64,000 bases of DNA, taken from NCBI RefSeq assembly GCF_000220525.1, contig NZ_AFPK01000036.1:62001-126000 (forward strand), in the 5' to 3' direction. The translations under genes were made by a program, and so were the position numbers. This stretch comes from Ochrovirga pacifica (GTDB taxonomy: Bacteria; Bacteroidota; Bacteroidia; Flavobacteriales; Flavobacteriaceae). Position 1 is the first letter of the stretch. Each line of letters starts with the position of its first letter. Below, piece by piece: positions 14,858 through 27,152 of this stretch. Below the pieces are notes generated by a model. It searched no databases. It had not been told where the DNA came from and was given only the letters and a program-made list of their open reading frames with translations.

Positions 14858-14893
14858 AAACACAACTTGTTCCACGTGGAACAAGTTGTGTTT
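14858..14893. other. parS: parS-like site 1 inside a 36-bp perfect palindrome
   Basis: The core GTTCCACGTGGAAC (14869-14882) matches the parS consensus (TGTTNCACGTGNAACA) in its conserved positions. The symmetry extends over 36 bases without a mismatch, centred between 14875 and 14876. It lies in the 178-base gap downstream of mnmG. ParB of the chromosome segregation system would bind here. Confidence 0.8.
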
Positions 14894-14935: not shown

Positions 14936-16813
14936 TTATCTTCCCATATAGACCAATAGCACTGAAACATCCGACGGAGATACTCCACTAATTCTGCTAG
15001 CTTGTGATATGGTTACTGGCTGAATCTTGGTTAATTTTTGCTGTGCTTCTATAGAAAGTGATTTTACTTTGTAATAATCGAAGTTTTTTGGAATAGATAT
15101 ATTTTCTAAGCGTTGTAACTTATCAGCATTATTTTTTTCTTTTTCTATATACCCTGCATATTTAACTTTTACCTCTGCTTGTTCTAAAATTTCATTATCA
15201 ATTTCATGTTCTTTTATAAAATCTGCTACACCAGGAAACATTAAAACATCATTAAAATCTATCTGAGGACGAGAAGCTATTTTATACATTTTCATAGATT
15301 GTGTTATCAAAGCAGAACCTTTAGCTTCTAAAATAGGATTTACATCATTTGGTTTAATACTGGTTTCTTCTAAAAATTGAACTAACAAATCTGATTTTTT
15401 CACCTTTTCTTTTACACGTTCTAATCGTTCATCAGATGCCAAACCAATAGCATTGGCAATAGGTGTTAAACGTATATCTGCATTGTCTTGACGTAATAAA
15501 GTCCTATATTCTGCTCTAGAAGTAAACATTCTGTAAGGCTCTTCTGTTCCTTTTGTAATTAAATCGTCTATTAAAACACCAATATAAGCTTCATCTCTTT
15601 TTAGAATAAAAGGGGGTTTAGATTGTACTTTTAAAGCAGCATTGATACCAGCCATTAATCCTTGAGAAGCTGCTTCTTCATATCCAGTAGTACCGTTTAT
15701 TTGACCAGCAAAAAATAAATTTTCTACTAATTTAGTTTCTAAAGTATGTGTTAATTGTGTTGGTGGAAAATAATCATATTCTATAGCATAACCATATCTT
15801 AAAAATTTTACATTCTCGAAACCTGCAACTTTTCGTAAAGCTTTGTCCTGAATATCTTCGGGCAATGATGTAGAAAAGCCATTTACATAAATCTCAACCG
15901 TATTCCATCCTTCAGGTTCTACAAAAATTTGATGTCTATCTTTAGTAGCAAAACGATCAATTTTATCTTCAATAGAAGGACAATATCTTGGACCTGTAGA
16001 TTGAATTCTACCATTAAACATTGGAGAACGATCAAAACCTGAACGCAACAAATCATGCACTTCTTGAGAGGTGTAACTCATGTAACAAGAGCGTTGTTCT
16101 GTTAGTGGTTTGGTTGTTTTTAAATAAGAGAACTTTTCAGGATTTTCATCTCCGGGTTGTTCTATCATTTTAGAAAAATCTAAAGAACGAGCATCTACTC
16201 TTGGAGGTGTTCCTGTTTTCATTCTTCCTGCTTCAAAACCAACTTTAACCAAATCTTCAGTAATTCCTGTAGAAGCACTTTCACCAGAACGTCCTCCACC
16301 AAAAGATTTTTCTCCTATATGAATTAAACCGTTTAAAAAAGTACCAGCAGTAATAATTACTGAATTTGCTTTAATTTCAAAACCTAAACCTGTTTTAACT
16401 CCTTTAATTTTACCGTCTTCTATTATCAATCCTTTGATCATATCTTGGTAAAAATCTAAGTTTTGGGTTTGTTCCAACATGATTCTCCATTCTTCTGCAA
16501 AACGCATACGATCAGATTGTGCACGTGGACTCCACATTGCTGGTCCTTTTGATTTGTTTAACATCTTAAACTGAATAGCTGTCTTATCAGTTACTATACC
16601 ACTATAACCACCTAAGGCATCAATTTCTCTAACTATTTGTCCTTTTGCAATACCTCCCATAGCAGGGTTACAACTCATTTGTGCAATATTTTGCAAACTC
16701 ATGGTTACCAATAAAGTTTTAGCTCCCATATTTGCTGCTGCAGCTGCTGCCTCTGAACCTGCATGACCACCACCAACAACAATTACATCATATGTTTCTG
16801 TAAATAAGCTCAT
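14936..16813 (-). CDS. mnmG: tRNA uridine 5-carboxymethylaminomethyl modification enzyme
   Basis: MnmG (GidA), the FAD-binding partner of MnmE, modifies U34 of tRNAs read in split codon boxes. It is 625 residues long, the usual size. The FAD motif VVGGGHAGSEAAAAAANMG is at the N-terminus, followed by MSCNPAMGGIAKGQIVREID. PRVDARSLDF and YCPSIEDKIDRF are mid-protein signatures, and the C-terminal region ends with TISQASRISGVSPSDVSVLLVYM. It is flanked on both sides by parS-like sites. In many bacteria gidA is an oriC neighbour, in line with the oriC candidate 8 kb away. mnmE is not in the window. Confidence 0.97.
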   Translation of the reverse strand: MSLFTETYDVIVVGGGHAGSEAAAAAANMGAKTLLVTMSLQNIAQMSCNPAMGGIAKGQIVREIDALGGYSGIVTDKTAIQFKMLNKSKGPAMWSPRAQSDRMRFAEEWRIMLEQTQNLDFYQDMIKGLIIEDGKIKGVKTGLGFEIKANSVIITAGTFLNGLIHIGEKSFGGGRSGESASTGITEDLVKVGFEAGRMKTGTPPRVDARSLDFSKMIEQPGDENPEKFSYLKTTKPLTEQRSCYMSYTSQEVHDLLRSGFDRSPMFNGRIQSTGPRYCPSIEDKIDRFATKDRHQIFVEPEGWNTVEIYVNGFSTSLPEDIQDKALRKVAGFENVKFLRYGYAIEYDYFPPTQLTHTLETKLVENLFFAGQINGTTGYEEAASQGLMAGINAALKVQSKPPFILKRDEAYIGVLIDDLITKGTEEPYRMFTSRAEYRTLLRQDNADIRLTPIANAIGLASDERLERVKEKVKKSDLLVQFLEETSIKPNDVNPILEAKGSALITQSMKMYKIASRPQIDFNDVLMFPGVADFIKEHEIDNEILEQAEVKVKYAGYIEKEKNNADKLQRLENISIPKNFDYYKVKSLSIEAQQKLTKIQPVTISQASRISGVSPSDVSVLLVYMGR

Positions 16814-16932
16814 TTTTGTATAAGTTTATCAAGTTATAAGCGCAATAATGTAAAAAGTGTTTTAGCTTGTAAATAATTACAAATCATTAAAACAAACAGA
16901 ACAACATTCTTGACCTTAAAACTTCGTTTATA

Positions 16933-16946
16933 GTTCCACGTGGAAC
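16933..16946. other. parS: parS-like site 2
   Basis: GTTCCACGTGGAAC is a perfect 14-base palindrome with the same core as site 1. It lies in the 141-base gap between ybeY and mnmG, nine bases from the ybeY stop. Confidence 0.78.
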
Positions 16947-16954
16947 ATTCTTAA

Positions 16955-17538: not shown

Positions 17539-19050
17539 ATGAGCGTACGTGTAAGATTTGCACCAAGTCCCACTGGACCTTTACATATGGGAGGAGTTAG
17601 AACAGCATTGTTTAATTATTTATTTGCCAAAAAAAATAAAGGAACATTTGTATTAAGAATTGAAGATACAGACCAAACAAGATATGTATCTAATGCAGAA
17701 AAATACATTGTAGACTCTTTAGATTGGTGTGGAATTTCTTTTGATGAAGGACCAGGAAAAAATGAAAAATTTGGTCCTTATAGACAATCTGAAAGAAAAG
17801 ATATTTATAAAAAATATGCAGATGCTTTAGTAGCAAGTGGTCAAGCGTATTATGCTTTTGATACATCAGAAGAATTGGATGCTTTAAGAAAAGAAGCCGA
17901 AGAAAATAAAACAGTTTTTATCTATAATAGTGTTTCACGTGGAACGTTGAATAATTCCATCAAACTGAGTGATGATGAAGTGAAGGCTAAATTGAAATCT
18001 GGAGATAAATATGTAATTAGATTTAAAACTCCTGTTGATCAAAAACTGATTTTGGATGATATGATTCGTGGTGAAATTGTAATTGATACGAATACCTTAG
18101 ATGATAAAATTTTATTTAAATCTGATGGGATGCCTACTTATCATTTGGCTAACATAGTGGATGATCATTTAATGAAAATTACACATGTAATACGTGGAGA
18201 AGAATGGTTGCCATCACTTCCACTACACTCCCTACTATATGAAGCTTTTGGATGGATTCAACCAAAATTTGCACACCTACCATTGATATTAAAACCAGTA
18301 GGTAAAGGTAAGTTAAGTAAACGTGATGGAGACAAGCTTGGGTTTCCTGTTTTTCCATTAAACTACACTAATGATAAAACTAAAGAAATTACAAAAGGAT
18401 ATAAAGAAGAAGGTTATTTTAATGAAGCATTTGTAAACATGTTGGCTTTTTTAGGATGGAATCCAGGTACGGAAAAAGAACTATTTTCTTTAGAAGAATT
18501 GATTCATGAATTTAGTATTGAAAAGGTATCAAAGTCAGGAGCTAAATTTAGTCCTGAAAAAACAAATTGGTTCAATCAACAATATATGCAGTTAAAAAGT
18601 GATGAAGAAATAGCCGAATACTATATCAATGAAAATAAAGAGAAACTAAACAAATTTGATAAAGAATATATTATCAAGGTAGTTTCATTAGTAAAAGAAA
18701 GAGCTGTTTTTACAAAAGATTTATGGGATTTATCAAACTACTTTTTTGAAGCCCCATCGAATTACGATCCTAAAGCATCAAAAAAACAATGGAAAGAAGA
18801 TACTAATGAAATAATGCTTCAAGTATTAGAAATAATTAAAGAAACAGAAACTTTTAAAAGCTTGGAAATAGAAACTAACATTAAAAGCTTTTTAAAAGAG
18901 AATGAATTAGGATTTGGTAAAGTAATGCCTCCATTAAGATTGGCAATTGTAGGAGAAATGAAAGGTCCTCACCTATTTGATATTATTGAAATGATTGGTA
19001 AAGAAAATACTTTGAAAAGAATTGAAAATGCAATACAAACGCTGAGTTAA
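17539..19050 (+). CDS. gltX: Glutamate--tRNA ligase
   Basis: Class I aminoacyl-tRNA synthetase charging tRNA-Glu, 503 residues. The HIGH-type motif is in PSPTGPLHMGGVRTALFN and the KMSKS-type motif is GKGKLSKRDGDKLG. The central segment HVIRGEEWLPSLPLHSLLYEAFGW is conserved. No zinc-binding CxC cluster is seen in the stem-contact region, which is typical of many bacterial GltX proteins. A parS-like sequence is embedded in the coding region near codons 131-136 (SVSRGT). The gene is closed by a strong terminator. Confidence 0.97.
   Translation: MSVRVRFAPSPTGPLHMGGVRTALFNYLFAKKNKGTFVLRIEDTDQTRYVSNAEKYIVDSLDWCGISFDEGPGKNEKFGPYRQSERKDIYKKYADALVASGQAYYAFDTSEELDALRKEAEENKTVFIYNSVSRGTLNNSIKLSDDEVKAKLKSGDKYVIRFKTPVDQKLILDDMIRGEIVIDTNTLDDKILFKSDGMPTYHLANIVDDHLMKITHVIRGEEWLPSLPLHSLLYEAFGWIQPKFAHLPLILKPVGKGKLSKRDGDKLGFPVFPLNYTNDKTKEITKGYKEEGYFNEAFVNMLAFLGWNPGTEKELFSLEELIHEFSIEKVSKSGAKFSPEKTNWFNQQYMQLKSDEEIAEYYINENKEKLNKFDKEYIIKVVSLVKERAVFTKDLWDLSNYFFEAPSNYDPKASKKQWKEDTNEIMLQVLEIIKETETFKSLEIETNIKSFLKENELGFGKVMPPLRLAIVGEMKGPHLFDIIEMIGKENTLKRIENAIQTLS
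17932..17945. other. parS: parS-like site 3, inside gltX
   Basis: GTTTCACGTGGAAC differs from a perfect palindrome by one base and fits the parS consensus. It lies within the gltX reading frame. ParB sites inside genes are well known. Confidence 0.68.
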
Positions 19051-21507: not shown

Positions 21508-21708
21508 TTATTTTTTTGAGTCTTCTTCTACCTTTTTTTTGTCATCATCATCGTCTTGTGTTGCTTTTTTAAATTCTTTAATTCCACCACCAAGACCTTT
21601 CATTAATTCCGGAATTTTTCTTCCTCCAAACAATAATAGAACAACAACCGCTATTAAAATCATGGACTGTGGTCCAACAAAACCAAGTGATATATTTAAA
21701 ATATTCAT
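21508..21708 (-). CDS. tatA: Sec-independent protein translocase subunit TatA
   Basis: A 66-residue Tat pore component. The N-terminal helix (about residues 14-30, [21 protein letters not shown]) contains the conserved FGGRKIPEL turn. An amphipathic helix ([16 protein letters not shown]) and an acidic/basic tail follow. Twin-arginine substrates pass through the inner membrane in folded form. TatB and TatC are not in the window, and many Bacteroidetes encode tatA alone at such a site. A TATATTTG promoter element lies about 20 bases upstream, and a strong terminator follows. Confidence 0.93.
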
Positions 21709-22461: not shown

Positions 22462-24675
22462 TTAATCTTCTATCAAAAAGAAGTCCAAATGTTTTCTTTC
22501 TAGGTCTGCATTTTTAACTTTTATCCAAACTTCATCCCCTAGCCTATAAGTTTCTCCGTAACGTTTACCTATTAAAGCATATTCTTCTGGATCAAAAATA
22601 AAATGATCGCTGGTAATATCTCTTAATCTTACCATACCTTCACATTTATTTTCAATAATTTCAACATAAATTCCCCATTCTGTAACTCCAGAAATCACTC
22701 CTTTAAAAGCCTTACCAGTAAAATTTTGCATGTATTTTATTTGCATGTATTTTATGGAATCTCGTTCTGCTTTAGAGGCCAACATTTCCATTTCTGATGA
22801 GTGTTTGCATTTTTCTTCGTACTCTTCTGCAGAAACAGATTTACCTCTGTCTAAATAATGCTGTAACAAACGATGAGCCATTACATCTGGGTAACGTCTT
22901 ATAGGCGAAGTAAAATGGCTGTAATAATCAAAAGCCAATCCGTAATGACCAATATTTTCTGTAGTGTATTCTGCCTTGCTCATAGAACGAATTGTTAATG
23001 TTTCAATCATATTAGATTCTGCTTTTCCATGGGCATCTTTAAGTAGCTTGTTTAAAGAAGAAGATGTAGATATTCTAGATTTGGTATTAATAGCATATCC
23101 AAATTTAGAAACCAAATTTCCTAAAGCTTCTAATTTATCTACATTAGGTTCATCGTGCACACGGTAAATAAATGTTTTTTTAGGTTGTCCTGATTTTGTT
23201 CTTCCTATAAATTCTGCCACTTTTTTATTGGCCAATAGCATAAATTCTTCAATCAGTTTATTAGCATCTTTAGATTCTTTAAAAAAGACTCCTACAGGCT
23301 CACTTTTTTCGTTTAAATTAAATTTTGTTTCTATTTTATCGAAAGCTAGCGCACCAGATTTTAATCGTTTAGCTCTCATTTTTTTTGCCAAACTATCTAA
23401 GGTTAGAATTGCTTTAGCAATATTTGTATCTACTTCATAGCTTTCTCCTGTTAACGAAATTTCTGAAGGAATTGTTGGCGGATTTGCTTCAGGATTTTCT
23501 ATAATTACCTGAGCTTCTTCATAAGCAAAACGTTTGTCGGAATAAGTTACTGTTCTTCCAAACCATTGGTGTAACAATTCTGCTTTTTCATTCATTTCAA
23601 AAATAGCTGAAAAAGTAAGTTTTTCTTCATTGGGTCTAAGAGAACAAACTCCGTTAGAAAGCATTTCTGGCAACATAGGTACTACCCTGTCTACCAAATA
23701 AACTGAAGTAGCTCGTTCAAAAGCTTCATTATCTAATACAGAGCCTTCTTGTACGTAATGAGACACATCGGCTATGTGAATTCCTATTTGATAATTTCCA
23801 TTTTCTAAAACCTGAAAAGATAGTGCATCATCAAAATCTTTTGCATCTTTTGGATCAATAGTAAAAGTTAAGACATCTCTTAAATCTCTTCTTTTAGCAA
23901 TTTCATCTTCTGTAATTTCTATTTCTAAAGCTTTGGCAGCTTCTTCTACTTGAGATGGGAATTCGTATGGCAAATCGTATTCAGCTAGAATAGCATGAAT
24001 CTCTGTATTATGTTCTCCAGATTTACCCAAAACACGTGTAATAATTCCAAATGGATTTTTAGAGTCACTAGGCCAGTCCGTTATTTCTGCTACCACTTTA
24101 TCACCGTTTTCAGCATTTCCAATTTTTTCTTTAGGAATAAAAATGTCGTTGCTCATACTAAAGTCATCAGGTACCACAAAGCCGTAGCTAGTACTTAATT
24201 GTAGTGTTCCTACAAAATGATGCTTGTATCTTTCTATAATTTCTACAACTTCACCTTCTACTTTTTTCTTAGTAGCTCTTTTGTAAACATATACCTTTAC
24301 AGTATCGCCATTAAGTCCGCTGTTTAAATCGTTTTTGTGTATAAAAACATCTTCTTCTAAATCATCACACACAAAATATGCATTTCCAGATTTGGTAACA
24401 TCTAGTTGCCCTATATGATAATTTTTGGTAGCATCTAAAAGATATTTACCTCTTTCTATTTCAATAATTTTTTTTTGAAATTTTAATTCTTCAAGCTTGG
24501 CTAATAATTGTTGTTTGCTGTTGTGGTCTTTTAGTCCAAGATTAGCGGCAATTTGTTTGTAGTTTAAAGGTTTGTTTTGGTTAGAGTTTAAAGTTTTAAA
24601 AATATTTTTCGTTAAATCTTTTACGATTTTACCTTTTGATTTGAAAATTCCCTTATTTCTTTTACCTCTTGCCAT
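22462..24675 (-). CDS. rnr: Ribonuclease R
   Basis: A 3'-5' exoribonuclease that degrades structured RNA, 737 residues. Domains in order: an N-terminal helix-turn-helix-like region (about 1-75, basic), cold-shock domains (about 80-225), the RNB catalytic domain (about 260-590) and an S1 domain (about 650-737). In the RNB domain, DPKDAKDFDDALSF holds the metal-binding aspartates and HFTSPIRRYPDVMAHRLLQHYL is the RNB signature. The C-terminal S1 domain includes GKAFKGVISGVTEWGIYVEIIENKCEGMVRL. It sits directly beside the oriC candidate and is transcribed away from it. Confidence 0.96.
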   Translation of the reverse strand: MARGKRNKGIFKSKGKIVKDLTKNIFKTLNSNQNKPLNYKQIAANLGLKDHNSKQQLLAKLEELKFQKKIIEIERGKYLLDATKNYHIGQLDVTKSGNAYFVCDDLEEDVFIHKNDLNSGLNGDTVKVYVYKRATKKKVEGEVVEIIERYKHHFVGTLQLSTSYGFVVPDDFSMSNDIFIPKEKIGNAENGDKVVAEITDWPSDSKNPFGIITRVLGKSGEHNTEIHAILAEYDLPYEFPSQVEEAAKALEIEITEDEIAKRRDLRDVLTFTIDPKDAKDFDDALSFQVLENGNYQIGIHIADVSHYVQEGSVLDNEAFERATSVYLVDRVVPMLPEMLSNGVCSLRPNEEKLTFSAIFEMNEKAELLHQWFGRTVTYSDKRFAYEEAQVIIENPEANPPTIPSEISLTGESYEVDTNIAKAILTLDSLAKKMRAKRLKSGALAFDKIETKFNLNEKSEPVGVFFKESKDANKLIEEFMLLANKKVAEFIGRTKSGQPKKTFIYRVHDEPNVDKLEALGNLVSKFGYAINTKSRISTSSSLNKLLKDAHGKAESNMIETLTIRSMSKAEYTTENIGHYGLAFDYYSHFTSPIRRYPDVMAHRLLQHYLDRGKSVSAEEYEEKCKHSSEMEMLASKAERDSIKYMQIKYMQNFTGKAFKGVISGVTEWGIYVEIIENKCEGMVRLRDITSDHFIFDPEEYALIGKRYGETYRLGDEVWIKVKNADLERKHLDFFLIED

Positions 24676-25372
24676 AGTTCTAAGTTTTTCATCTAGTAAA
24701 GGTACATAAATACATAAAGTTGATTTAGCTAATAATCACATTTAAAATTGATTTTTAACAATTTAATATTTAATTATTTTTCTTTTCTTAAAAAATTTTA
24801 AAACACATTATGAACTATTATTAGTTGTTGATTTTCACAATAAATTAACAATCAAAAACTTTTACTTAACATAGAATTTACTTTATTAACATTTTATTAA
24901 GACTTTAAAGTATTGTTTTTTAGTAGTATAATTATAGTTATTCACACTTGTTGATAACTGTTTTAGCTGTTTTCTGAGTATAAAAATCAACTACAAGATT
25001 TTTGATAAAGTGTGAATAAATTGTTAATAAGCTGTGATAACTTATTTGTAAATAAATTTGCATGATGTGGTTTAAGTCACGTATTGTTTTTTTGAACTTA
25101 AAATCAAAATTAACTTAATAGAATTTTATCACAGGTTATCAACATTTTTATATATCTTATAACTTGCTGATTTTTAATAGAATTCAAGAAACTTATCAAT
25201 TTATATGTTAATAACTCTATTTTAATGTAAATAACATAATAAATAATTATTTTTACTACATTTTTTTTAATGTATAGTTGCTGATTTTTAAGGAGTTAAA
25301 TAAACAACAAAGCATATAGCTACTAACCTTCCATTTTGTAAATTTGCTTTCTTTAAAAAAAGAACTAATCTT
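24676..25372. other. oriC: Candidate replication origin (oriC)
   Basis: This 697-base gap between rnr and ndh has no gene and is extremely AT-rich. It contains a dense set of DnaA-box-like 9-mers (consensus TTATCCACA): TTATTCACA at 24938, TGTTGATAA at 24949, TGTGAATAA at 25011 and TTATCAACA at 25136, each one base off consensus. Two shorter TTATCACA-type sequences occur at 25033 (minus strand) and 25126. Boxes lie on both strands, and AT-only stretches flank them (24760-24900, 25195-25270), which could be the unwinding element. The parS-like cluster and mnmG lie within 10 kb. The replication initiator gene dnaA is not adjacent, as is usual in many Bacteroidetes. GC-skew was not measured. The ndh promoter candidate lies at the right edge. 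Confidence 0.65.
25339..25346 (+). promoter_or_regulatory. -7 element upstream of ndh
   Basis: TAAATTTG matches TAnnTTTG and gives a leader of about 23 bases. Confidence 0.5.
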
Positions 25373-26680
25373 ATGAATGTACCAAAATCCAATTTGCCTA
25401 GAGTAGTTGTAATAGGTGGTGGATTTGCGGGTCTAAATTTGGTAAAAAGACTACGTAAATTACCCATTCAATTAGTAATGGTAAACAAACACAATTACCA
25501 TGCGTTTCAACCATTATTGTATCAAATTTCTACTAGTGGTATAGAATCTGATTCTATTGCTTATCCTCTAAGAATGTTCATCAAAAAACAACAGAACTTT
25601 TATTTTAGGATGGCCGATGTTAAAGAAATTGATCCTACCCACAAAATTGTAAAATCGGACATAGGAGAGCTTTCATACGATTATTTAATTATCAATACTG
25701 GTACTAAAACCAATTTTTTTGGAAATAAAGAAATAAAAAAACACGCAATGCCTATGAAAACTATTCCTCAGGCATTGAATTTACGTAGTTTGATTTTACA
25801 AAATTTTGAGCGTGCCACAGTCGAAGCTGATGAAGAAGTACAACGTTTTTTATTAAATTTTGTTATTGTAGGTGCTGGACCTACAGGAGTTGAATTGGCT
25901 GGTGCTATTGCAGAATTTAAACAGAGTGTATTGCCTTTAGATTATCCAGATTTAAATTCAGAATTAATGCAAATAAACTTGCTAGAAGGAGCCGATAGAG
26001 TACTACCTCCTATGAGTGAGCATGCTTCTAAAAAATCTACTCAGTTTCTAAAAGAATTAGGGGTTGAAATACATACCAATACCATTGTTACAGAATACGA
26101 CGGAAAATTAGCAAAAACAAAAGATGGAAAAGAATTTGCTTCTAGAACTTTAATATGGTCTGCTGGTGTAATAGCCAATAGAATTGATGGATTTTCGGAA
26201 GAAGCCTCTGAACCTAGAAGCAAAAGATATTACGTAAATGAGTTTAACCAAGTAAAAGGATACTCCAATGTCTTTGCTCTTGGAGATGTAGCTTTAATGG
26301 CTTCTAAAGATTATCCAAGAGGTCATCCTCAGGTAGCCCAACCAGCTATTCAACAAGCAGTAAATTTGGCTAAAAATTTTCCAAAGATTTTAAAAGGAAA
26401 TAAAAACTTAAAGCCTTTTGTATACAACGACAAAGGTTCTATGGCAACCATTGGTAGAAACAAAGCGGTAGCAGATATTAAAAAACTAAAATTTGGAGGA
26501 TTTTTTGCTTGGTTAATATGGATGGCAGTACACTTAATATCTTTGGTTGGTTTTAAAAATAGATTGGTAATTTTAATTACTTGGATTTACAACTATGCCA
26601 ATTACAACAAAGGATCTCGTTTAATTATTAGACGATTTAGTGTTAGAAAACGCAGAGTAAGAACCAACGCAGAATTGTAG
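25373..26680 (+). CDS. Type II NADH dehydrogenase (NDH-2-like)
   Basis: A 435-residue peripheral membrane flavoprotein. It oxidises NADH and passes electrons to quinone without pumping protons. The FAD motif VVIGGGFAGLNLVKRLRKL is at the N-terminus, HAFQPLLYQISTSG is the family's next conserved block, and the NADH motif FVIVGAGPTGVELAGAIAE is at about residue 165. NVFALGDVALM precedes the substrate region. Near the C-terminus, FAWLIWMAVHLISLVGFKNR is a hydrophobic segment likely to bind the membrane. It has its own promoter candidate at the oriC edge. Confidence 0.93.
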   Translation: MNVPKSNLPRVVVIGGGFAGLNLVKRLRKLPIQLVMVNKHNYHAFQPLLYQISTSGIESDSIAYPLRMFIKKQQNFYFRMADVKEIDPTHKIVKSDIGELSYDYLIINTGTKTNFFGNKEIKKHAMPMKTIPQALNLRSLILQNFERATVEADEEVQRFLLNFVIVGAGPTGVELAGAIAEFKQSVLPLDYPDLNSELMQINLLEGADRVLPPMSEHASKKSTQFLKELGVEIHTNTIVTEYDGKLAKTKDGKEFASRTLIWSAGVIANRIDGFSEEASEPRSKRYYVNEFNQVKGYSNVFALGDVALMASKDYPRGHPQVAQPAIQQAVNLAKNFPKILKGNKNLKPFVYNDKGSMATIGRNKAVADIKKLKFGGFFAWLIWMAVHLISLVGFKNRLVILITWIYNYANYNKGSRLIIRRFSVRKRRVRTNAEL

Positions 26681-26691
26681 TCTTTTTTGTG

Positions 26692-26699
26692 TAATTTTG
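26692..26699 (+). promoter_or_regulatory. -7 element upstream of rpiB
   Basis: TAATTTTG matches TAnnTTTG in the 40-base gap after ndh. Confidence 0.5.
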
Positions 26700-26720
26700 C
26701 AGCATATAAAACTAGAACAA

Positions 26721-27152
26721 ATGAAAATAGCCATCGGAAACGATCATGCAGGACCAGATTATAAACAAGCAATTGTAACTTTATTAGAAAAAAAAGGAAT
26801 TGAGGTTGTTAATTACGGTACAGACACTTTTGATAGTGTGGATTATCCAGACCATGCGCATCAAGTTGCCAATGCAGTAGCTACTCAACAAGTAGATTTT
26901 GGAATACTAATATGTGGATCTGCAAATGGAGTAGCCATGACTGCTAATAAATATCAAAATGTAAGGGCTGGTTTGTGTTGGACTAACGAAATTGTTTCTT
27001 TAGTAAGACAGCACAACAACGCAAATGTTTTGTGTATTCCTGCTCGTTTTACAGCCATACCTCAGGTGTTAACCATGGTAGAAACTTTTTTAAATACCGA
27101 TTTTGAAGGAGGAAGACATCAAAATAGAGTGGCTAAAATAGCTTGTAGTTAA
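26721..27152 (+). CDS. rpiB: Ribose-5-phosphate isomerase B
   Basis: A 143-residue sugar-phosphate isomerase of the RpiB/LacAB family. It interconverts ribose 5-phosphate and ribulose 5-phosphate in the pentose phosphate pathway. Family motifs: IAIGNDHAGPDYKQAIV at the N-terminus, VDYPDHAHQVANAV, the catalytic Cys in ILICGSANGVAMTANKY, VRAGLC and HNNANVLCIPAR. I chose the ATG at 26721. A TTG at 26697 in the same frame overlaps the candidate promoter element and would add non-conserved residues. A strong terminator follows. Confidence 0.95.
   Translation: MKIAIGNDHAGPDYKQAIVTLLEKKGIEVVNYGTDTFDSVDYPDHAHQVANAVATQQVDFGILICGSANGVAMTANKYQNVRAGLCWTNEIVSLVRQHNNANVLCIPARFTAIPQVLTMVETFLNTDFEGGRHQNRVAKIACS

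What the first reader, a model, noticed from the sequence alone, without database searches (positions are those of the whole stretch)
24676..25372. Likely chromosomal replication origin in the rnr-ndh gap
The gap is 0.7 kb, gene-free and very AT-rich, with six DnaA-box-like sequences. Four are one base off TTATCCACA: TTATTCACA at 24938, TGTTGATAA at 24949, TGTGAATAA at 25011 and TTATCAACA at 25136. Two are shorter TTATCACA-type sequences, at 25033 and 25126. They lie on both strands. Genes to the left are biased to the minus strand and genes to the right to the plus strand, and parS sites and gidA are within 10 kb. dnaA is not beside it, which is common in Bacteroidetes.
Basis: partly seen in the sequence, partly recalled or inferred. 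Interest (0 to 1): 0.75.

Follow-up and report, generated by a model that had tools for sequence, protein, structure and literature searches.

The report
Chromosome replication start site, marine flavobacterium
The stretch is very probably where this marine bacterium starts copying its chromosome, at a site shared by many of its relatives, and the short DNA words there differ from the textbook ones, perhaps in step with the protein thought to read them.

Summary
The genome looks like Wenyingzhuangia. The gap is 697 bp and 19.7% G+C. It holds 4 one-mismatch DnaA boxes against 0.17 expected, and 7 of the 14 TTATYMACA boxes on the 132 kb of its contig that I read. In a congener the cumulative GC-skew minimum falls inside the orthologous box cluster. 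In five single-contig relatives of other genera the skew changes sign at or near the same site, there the rnr/rpiB gap. Three parS-like sites and gidA lie 6.7-10 kb away. dnaA is on another contig, and 0.21-0.49 of a chromosome away in 11 of 11 single-contig family chromosomes measured.

The unexpected part is the box code. In 30 family gaps TTATNAACA (87 found, 6.8 expected) outnumbers TTATNCACA (15 found, 1.9 expected), though both are enriched. In 47 of 48 family DnaA proteins read, alanine stands at the E. coli P423 and T435 positions. The one exception has T/S and only TTATNCACA boxes. That the residues cause the change is inferred from one contrast. No replication or DnaA-binding data were available.

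The parts
24676..25372 (.). oriC region: the rnr/ndh intergenic gap (the rnr/rpiB gap in many family members)
   Evidence: 697 bp, 19.7% G+C; densest box cluster on contig C42; skew switch in relatives
24883..24891 (+).
   Evidence: TTATYAACA in 6 of 6 genomes of the genus, 8/9 columns invariant
24938..24946 (+). DnaA box TTATTCACA
   Evidence: TTATYCACA in 6 of 6 genomes of the genus; present
24949..24957 (-). DnaA box TTATCAACA, facing the box at 24938
   Evidence: 6/9 columns invariant; the combined 24937-24957 motif occurs once in the 3.38-Mb draft genome, backwards control 0
25011..25019 (-). DnaA box TTATTCACA
   Evidence: 7/9 columns invariant, TTATNCAC[AG] in 6 of 6
25022..25030 (-). 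DnaA box TTATTAACA, direct repeat with the box at 25011
   Evidence: 8/9 columns invariant
25126..25133 (+). degenerate box TTATCACA; 4 of 5 congeners have TAACCACA here
   Evidence: 5/9 columns invariant
25136..25144 (+). DnaA box TTATCAACA
   Evidence: TTATYAACA in 6 of 6 genomes of the genus
25206..25214 (-). DnaA box TTATTAACA
   Evidence: 9/9 columns invariant in 6 of 6
25170..25269 (.). candidate DNA unwinding element (side not proven)
   Evidence: least stable 100-bp stretch of the 64-kb window by nearest-neighbour energy; the least stable 200-bp stretch starts at 24742, on the other side of the boxes; at 50 bp the least stable is at 21690, outside the gap
14868..14883 (+). parS TGTTCCACGTGGAACA
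16932..16947 (+). parS-like site, one mismatch
17931..17946 (+). parS-like site, one mismatch, inside the gltX-like gene
14936..16813 (-). mnmG/gidA, the gene that published Ori-Finder runs name beside oriC in two other Flavobacteriaceae
   Evidence: Pfam GIDA 3.1e-165; papers
22462..24675 (-). rnr, ribonuclease R, left neighbour
   Evidence: Pfam RNB 2.7e-105
25373..26680 (+). ndh, type II NADH dehydrogenase, right neighbour here
   Evidence: Pfam NDH2_C, Pyr_redox_2
26697..27152 (+). rpiB, the right neighbour of the gap in many family members
   Evidence: Pfam LacAB_rpiB 6.3e-55; positions

Best explanation
The gap is the chromosomal replication origin. DnaA, made from a distant gene, binds a cluster of seven TTATYMACA boxes (24883-25214), some of them in close pairs, and oligomerises. 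It melts one of the very AT-rich flanks, most likely 25170-25269, and two helicases are loaded, giving bidirectional replication: leftward through rnr and mnmG, rightward through ndh and rpiB. ParB on three parS sites 7-10 kb to the left would carry the new origins apart. Shown here: the box cluster and its conservation, the skew switch, the parS sites, the weak flanks. Inferred from known oriC biology: DnaA binding, melting, helicase loading, and which flank opens.
For: 4 one-mismatch boxes vs 0.17 expected, 0 of 2000 shuffles. 7 of 14 TTATYMACA boxes on the contig lie in this gap; no other 500-bp window there has more than 1. Box columns invariant 54/63 vs 160/371 for the rest of the core, six genomes of the genus. 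W. heitensis cumulative skew minimum at 336,274, box cluster 336,037-336,499. In 400 kb of another genus (G021) the top TTATYMACA cluster was again the rnr/rpiB gap. Right-minus-left skew with the gap as origin: G025 p=0.00005, G032 p=0.0056, G021 0 of 20,000 permutations, G040 0 of 20,000, G014 p=0.00015. 23 out-of-genus gaps: 50 TTATYMACA vs 3.5 expected; 2.58 per kb vs 0.09 per kb both in sixty 5-kb samples and upstream of ndh in 28 relatives. parS 3 vs 0.21 expected.
Against: No direct replication data. On the window's own contig the change point is fitted at 17 kb (95% 7-29 kb) while the cumulative minimum is at 30.2 kb, so skew there cannot place the origin to better than about 10 kb. 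In G021 the change-point fit is 1,139-1,174 kb, about 12-47 kb left of the gap at 1,186 kb; the curve is nearly flat from 1,166 to 1,246 kb and its minimum is at 1,234 kb. In G032, if the terminus is forced to lie opposite, the best origin is 996-1,170 kb, not the gap at 1,628 kb. In G040 the sample 164 kb right of the gap is still slightly negative. In W. heitensis two single 5-kb samples left of the gap (102 and 202 kb) are positive. 2 of 23 family gaps have no TTATYMACA box, and 2 of 3 further A/A rnr loci without rpiB nearby have none in 1.5 kb. An unwinding element or DnaA-trios were not demonstrated.
Confidence: 0.95

Rival explanations
1. The origin is beside mnmG/gidA (about 14.8-17.5 kb), as Ori-Finder predicted in two other Flavobacteriaceae, and the rnr gap is only a nearby DnaA-binding region.
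For: Mariniflexile litorale and Algorimicrobium papers name mnmG for oriC in the text (passages; in the first the figure legend labels mnmG as ter instead). parS sites flank mnmG. Change-point fits on C42 (17 kb) and in G021 (1,139-1,174 kb, mnmG at 1,165-1,167 kb) lean to that side.
Against: The rnr gap was the top TTATYMACA cluster in all three stretches scanned (own contig, G079, G021). Within 3 kb of mnmG there are 0, 1 and 1 TTATYMACA boxes. The W. heitensis minimum is between rnr and rpiB, its mnmG and parS 9-12 kb away. mnmG is a marker gene in such predictions and need not touch the origin (inference).
Confidence: 0.03
2. The boxes serve DnaA titration or transcriptional control of rnr and ndh, and the skew switch nearby is a coincidence.
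For: The gap is a divergent promoter region; DnaA boxes also occur in promoters, for example one TTATTCACA 95-127 nt upstream of dnaA in 7 of 9 genomes read.
Against: The genes beside the boxes change (ndh, rpiB, or an extra ORF next to rnr) while the box cluster stays. The skew switch follows the gap in other genera.
Confidence: 0.015
3. Chance cluster in an AT-rich spacer.
For: 19.7% G+C makes A/T-rich words common.
Against: Shuffles that keep neighbour composition give 0.17 boxes and 3.5 over 23 gaps against 50; boxes are conserved.
Confidence: 0.005

Closest known systems
DnaA-dependent bacterial oriC (E. coli, B. subtilis type; recalled)
   Same: AT-rich gene-free region, cluster of 9-mer DnaA boxes on both strands, skew minimum, parS and gidA nearby
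   Different: No dnaA beside it; in family gaps TTATNAACA words outnumber TTATNCACA words, against the E. coli consensus TTWTNCACA (passage); IHF/Fis/SeqA-type elements not examined
Predicted oriC of Elizabethkingia meningoseptica G4076 (PMC8994065, passages read)
   Same: 649-bp region with three one-mismatch DnaA boxes; dnaA far away
   Different: Another lineage; flanking genes not named in the passages
Ori-Finder oriC of Mariniflexile litorale and Algorimicrobium (PMC11278836, PMC12843772, passages read)
   Same: Flavobacteriaceae; in the first, the record start at dnaA did not fit the GC skew; origin named near mnmG (though the first paper's legend contradicts its text)
   Different: They name mnmG; here the box cluster is about 8 kb from mnmG, between rnr and ndh/rpiB
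Blattabacterium origin (PMC2768785, passages read)
   Same: Also placed by GC skew, away from the usual marker genes
   Different: That genome has no dnaA and no DnaA boxes; this one has both

Membership tests
DnaA-dependent chromosomal oriC | cluster of DnaA boxes beyond chance | tested here: met
DnaA-dependent chromosomal oriC | minimum of cumulative GC skew | tested here: met
   G079 minimum inside the box cluster; sampled sign change between the samples flanking the gap in 4 of 5 single-contig relatives and one sample later in the fifth; own contig consistent but imprecise
DnaA-dependent chromosomal oriC | AT-rich unwinding element | tested here: inconclusive
   least stable 100-bp and 200-bp stretches of the window are in the gap, the least stable 50-bp stretch is not; melting not shown
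DnaA-dependent chromosomal oriC | one such site per chromosome | tested here: inconclusive
   paired motif once in the draft genome; box clusters were scanned only on C42 and in two 400-kb stretches of relatives
DnaA-dependent chromosomal oriC | a dnaA gene in the genome | tested here: met
   contig C11, E 2.1e-59
DnaA-dependent chromosomal oriC | replication starts there in vivo; DnaA binds | not testable with these tools
   needs marker frequency and ChIP or footprinting
Basal unwinding system (DnaA boxes plus DnaA-trios) | DnaA-trio repeats within 16 bp of a box | not tested
   definition seen in passages of PMC8287927; no scored search run
Origin beside mnmG/gidA | box cluster next to mnmG | tested here: not met
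   0, 1 and 1 TTATYMACA boxes within 3 kb of mnmG in the own contig, G079 and G021

The most novel reading that the evidence does not exclude
In most Flavobacteriaceae the initiator and its origin have moved together to a shifted, or at least relaxed, box code: DnaA carries alanine at the E. coli P423 and T435 positions and accepts A at box position 6, so that TTATNAACA has become the commonest box, while a family member with T/S at those positions keeps TTATNCACA alone. If so, origin finders that score TTATCCACA under-call origins in this large group, as the one-mismatch scan did in G021.
Probability: 0.5. Interest if true: 0.6.

Novelty: new variant of a known kind. Interest (0 to 1): 0.5.

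Why it matters
It gives an origin position that holds across genera of a large, ecologically important family in which dnaA does not mark the origin. It also suggests a natural case of initiator and binding-site co-divergence that can be tested with two residues and one base position.

Tried and rejected
dnaA at the terminus: after the first three sampled chromosomes dnaA seemed to sit at the opposite skew switch. Rejected as a rule: in G021 the skew is negative through the whole of 3,087-3,487 kb, so its maximum lies before dnaA at 3,287 kb, and in G014 dnaA is 0.23 of a chromosome from the gap. What remains is that dnaA is not close in any of the 11 measured (the two-contig G024 was not measured).

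An Rfam element in the gap: none at gathering threshold.

One-mismatch TTATCCACA works less well than TTATYMACA in relatives: in G021's 400 kb it does not pick out the gap (lists capped at six clusters). TTATYMACA was read off the six genomes of the genus and then tested on gaps outside it.

Limits of the box-code case. Over 30 gaps both kinds are enriched, TTATNAACA about 12.7-fold and TTATNCACA about 7.9-fold, and the four commonest-by-ratio words include TTATCCACA (21-fold) beside TTATCAACA (29-fold); much of the majority of A words reflects that they are commoner by chance in AT-rich DNA. The safest statement is that A is accepted at position 6. The case leans on one contrasting genome (G138), whose rnr-upstream region was not shown by skew to be its origin; the hypergeometric value (0.00015) treats boxes as independent and is no phylogenetic test. 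29 loci outside the family have K or T at 423 and S or T at 435, but their boxes were not examined, and those loci were the top-scoring 30 (with G138) of 118 genomes, not a random draw. Words of the TTATNAACA kind occur with 'DnaA box' in papers on other bacteria (Cyanothece TTATCAACA, Mycoplasma hominis TTATTAACA; listing only), so such boxes are not unheard of.

Rows dropped: of 29 relatives' rnr loci, 23 were used as gaps; G002, G003 and G044 (rpiB 3-9 kb off), G019 and G017 (rpiB on another contig) and G025 (gap spans the record ends) were left out; the gaps of G047, G024 and G021 were cut at 1,500 bp. In the ndh control one locus (L024, short flank) was left out. Of 10 further rnr loci six had rpiB within 1.5 kb and joined the 30 gaps; L375, L376 and L382 (1, 0 and 0 TTATYMACA in 1.5 kb) did not, and L383 is G138. 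Expected counts in my scripts use first-order Markov shuffles.

Full report
What was claimed.

The observation. The window is G000:C42:62001-126000 of a 3.38-Mb draft in 77 contigs. Its Ndh protein is 86-92% identical to those of five Wenyingzhuangia genomes and 77% or less to the other 75 of 80 loci kept, so I take it as Wenyingzhuangia, a marine member of the Flavobacteriaceae. The gap is 697 bp and 19.7% G+C, between rnr (minus) and ndh (plus). The four one-mismatch boxes are where stated. Such boxes are not in clear excess over the whole window (26 vs 20.6 expected), but four in this gap compares with 0.17 expected and was reached by 0 of 2000 shuffles. The two short words at 25033 and 25126 are there but are poorly conserved. 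Three parS-like sites (14868, 16932, 17931; 0.21 expected) and mnmG/gidA (14936-16813) lie 6.7-10 kb away. Strand bias is moderate: 13 of 21 and 22 of 31 of the ORFs that I selected.

Anatomy. Aligning the gaps of six Wenyingzhuangia genomes (L037 and L040 cut to the 900 bp before rpiB) shows seven conserved boxes within about 330 bp: TTATTAACA 24883+, TTATTCACA 24938+, TTATCAACA 24949-, TTATTCACA 25011-, TTATTAACA 25022-, TTATCAACA 25136+, TTATTAACA 25206-. In the core (24806-25239) 54 of 63 box columns are invariant against 160 of 371 others. Where a box varies it is often at position 5 (C/T). The pair 24937-24957 occurs once in the draft genome, and the pattern read backwards not at all. 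The least stable 100-bp (25170) and 200-bp (24742) stretches of the 64-kb window lie in the gap, on either side of the boxes; the least stable 50-bp stretch is elsewhere (21690). The core is conserved although its neighbours differ: in the window, L038, L039 and L043 the order is rnr-gap-ndh-rpiB; in L037 and L040 an ORF of about 490 codons follows rnr and the boxes lie before rpiB-ndh.

Skew. Within the window the cumulative skew is lowest at 24-26 kb (-1.20) and nearly as low at 29-31 kb (-1.19). Over the contig the cumulative G-C curve is V-shaped, falling to -2340 and rising to -1468; its minimum is at window 30,173 and a change-point fit gives 17 kb (95% 7-29 kb). This brackets the gap but cannot place it. 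In W. heitensis, over 400 contiguous kb, the minimum is at 336,274 and the change-point fit at 336 kb (321-345 kb). The stretch between its rnr and rpiB is 335,732-338,198 (from L037 coordinates) and its box cluster 336,037-336,499. Single 5-kb samples of the same contig are noisier: those at 102 and 202 kb, left of the gap, are positive. In five single-contig relatives of other genera, sampled at 20 x 5 kb, the sign change falls between the samples flanking the rnr/rpiB gap in G021, G032 and G025 and G014. In G040 it falls one sample later. With the gap as origin and the antipode as terminus the arms differ by 0.116-0.217 in mean skew (p from 0.0056 down to 0 of 20,000 permutations). In G032 another origin (996-1,170 kb) does better if the terminus must be antipodal; with a free terminus the best origin is the interval holding the gap. 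The record of G025 starts inside this gap. Contiguous G021 data give a nearly flat floor from 1,166 to 1,246 kb and a change point at 1,139-1,174 kb, left of the gap at 1,186 kb.

Boxes decide between neighbours. Two papers on other Flavobacteriaceae, of which I read the matching passages, place oriC next to mnmG by Ori-Finder (in one the figure legend labels mnmG as ter, against its text). Scanning 132 kb of the own contig, 400 kb of W. heitensis and 400 kb of G021 for TTATYMACA, the densest 500-bp window was the rnr gap each time (7, 6 and 3 boxes; the next best had 1, 2 and 2). Within 3 kb of mnmG there are 0, 1 and 1 such boxes. With one-mismatch TTATCCACA the gap is top in the first two but not in G021.

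Family-wide. In 23 gaps upstream of rnr from 23 other genera, 50 TTATYMACA boxes stand against 3.5 expected; 21 of 23 have at least one and 15 of 23 at least two; density 2.58 per kb against 0.09 per kb both in sixty 5-kb samples and in the 800 bp upstream of ndh in 28 relatives. dnaA is 0.21-0.49 of a chromosome from rnr in 11 of 11 single-contig family chromosomes measured (four with rounded lengths).

A shifted or relaxed box code. Over 30 gaps (the 23, six more, and the window) I counted all 16 TTATNNACA words. A at position 6 totals 87 against 6.8 expected, C totals 15 against 1.9 (sums): A is the majority, but both are enriched (about 12.7- and 7.9-fold). All 30 genomes' DnaA proteins have alanine at the positions matching E. 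coli P423 and T435, which a paper passage lists among the residues for base-specific contact with R399, D433, H434 and H439; a review passage reports that E. coli T435M is defective in box binding. D433, H434, H439 and the arginine I take for R399 are kept in the window's DnaA (alignment to PDB 1j1v). In total 47 of 48 family DnaA proteins read are A/A. The exception, G138, has T/S, and the 1.5 kb upstream of its rnr holds three TTATCCACA and two TTATACACA and no TTATNAACA. Outside the family 29 of 29 loci read have K or T and S or T. The link is plausible and rests on one contrast. My one literature search for these words (listing only: 11 of 12 papers shown) showed no paper holding both 'Flavobacter' and TTATTAACA or TTATCAACA; two papers on other bacteria hold one of these words with 'DnaA box'. 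The library holds open-licence papers only.

A supporting detail. A TTATTCACA box stands 95-127 nt upstream of dnaA in the own genome, five congeners and a Polaribacter, but not in two Flavobacterium (7 of 9), as expected if DnaA controls its own gene.

How it most likely works. DnaA assembles on the paired boxes, opens one AT-rich flank, and helicases are loaded for two forks; ParB/parS then moves the origins apart. Binding, opening and the choice of flank are inferred.

Verdict. The gap is oriC with confidence 0.95. As an origin it is of a known kind; its site in the family, the distance from dnaA, and above all the altered box code make it a variant worth testing.

Noticed in passing
L001, L216, L219-L223, 95-127 nt upstream of dnaA: Conserved DnaA box TTATTCACA before dnaA in the own genome, five congeners and a Polaribacter (7 of 9 read), suggesting autoregulation of dnaA.
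   Followed up: partly
G014, G021, G023, G025, G032, G040, G114, G142, G187, L098, L106: dnaA lies 0.21-0.49 of a chromosome from rnr in 11 of 11 single-contig family chromosomes measured.
   Followed up: partly
L037 7010-9476 and L040 6795-9464: In two congeners an ORF of about 490 codons has come between rnr and the box cluster, and rpiB precedes ndh.
   Followed up: no
L383 (G138), rnr-upstream 1.5 kb: Family member with T/S DnaA has three exact TTATCCACA boxes, and an open frame of about 80 codons lies between rnr and most of the boxes.
   Followed up: partly
G000:C10:1231-1539: A second, weak Bac_DnaA match (24.5 bits) in the own genome, not examined.
   Followed up: no
PMC11278836: The text puts oriC by mnmG and ter by leuB, the figure legend the other way round (passages).
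   Followed up: no
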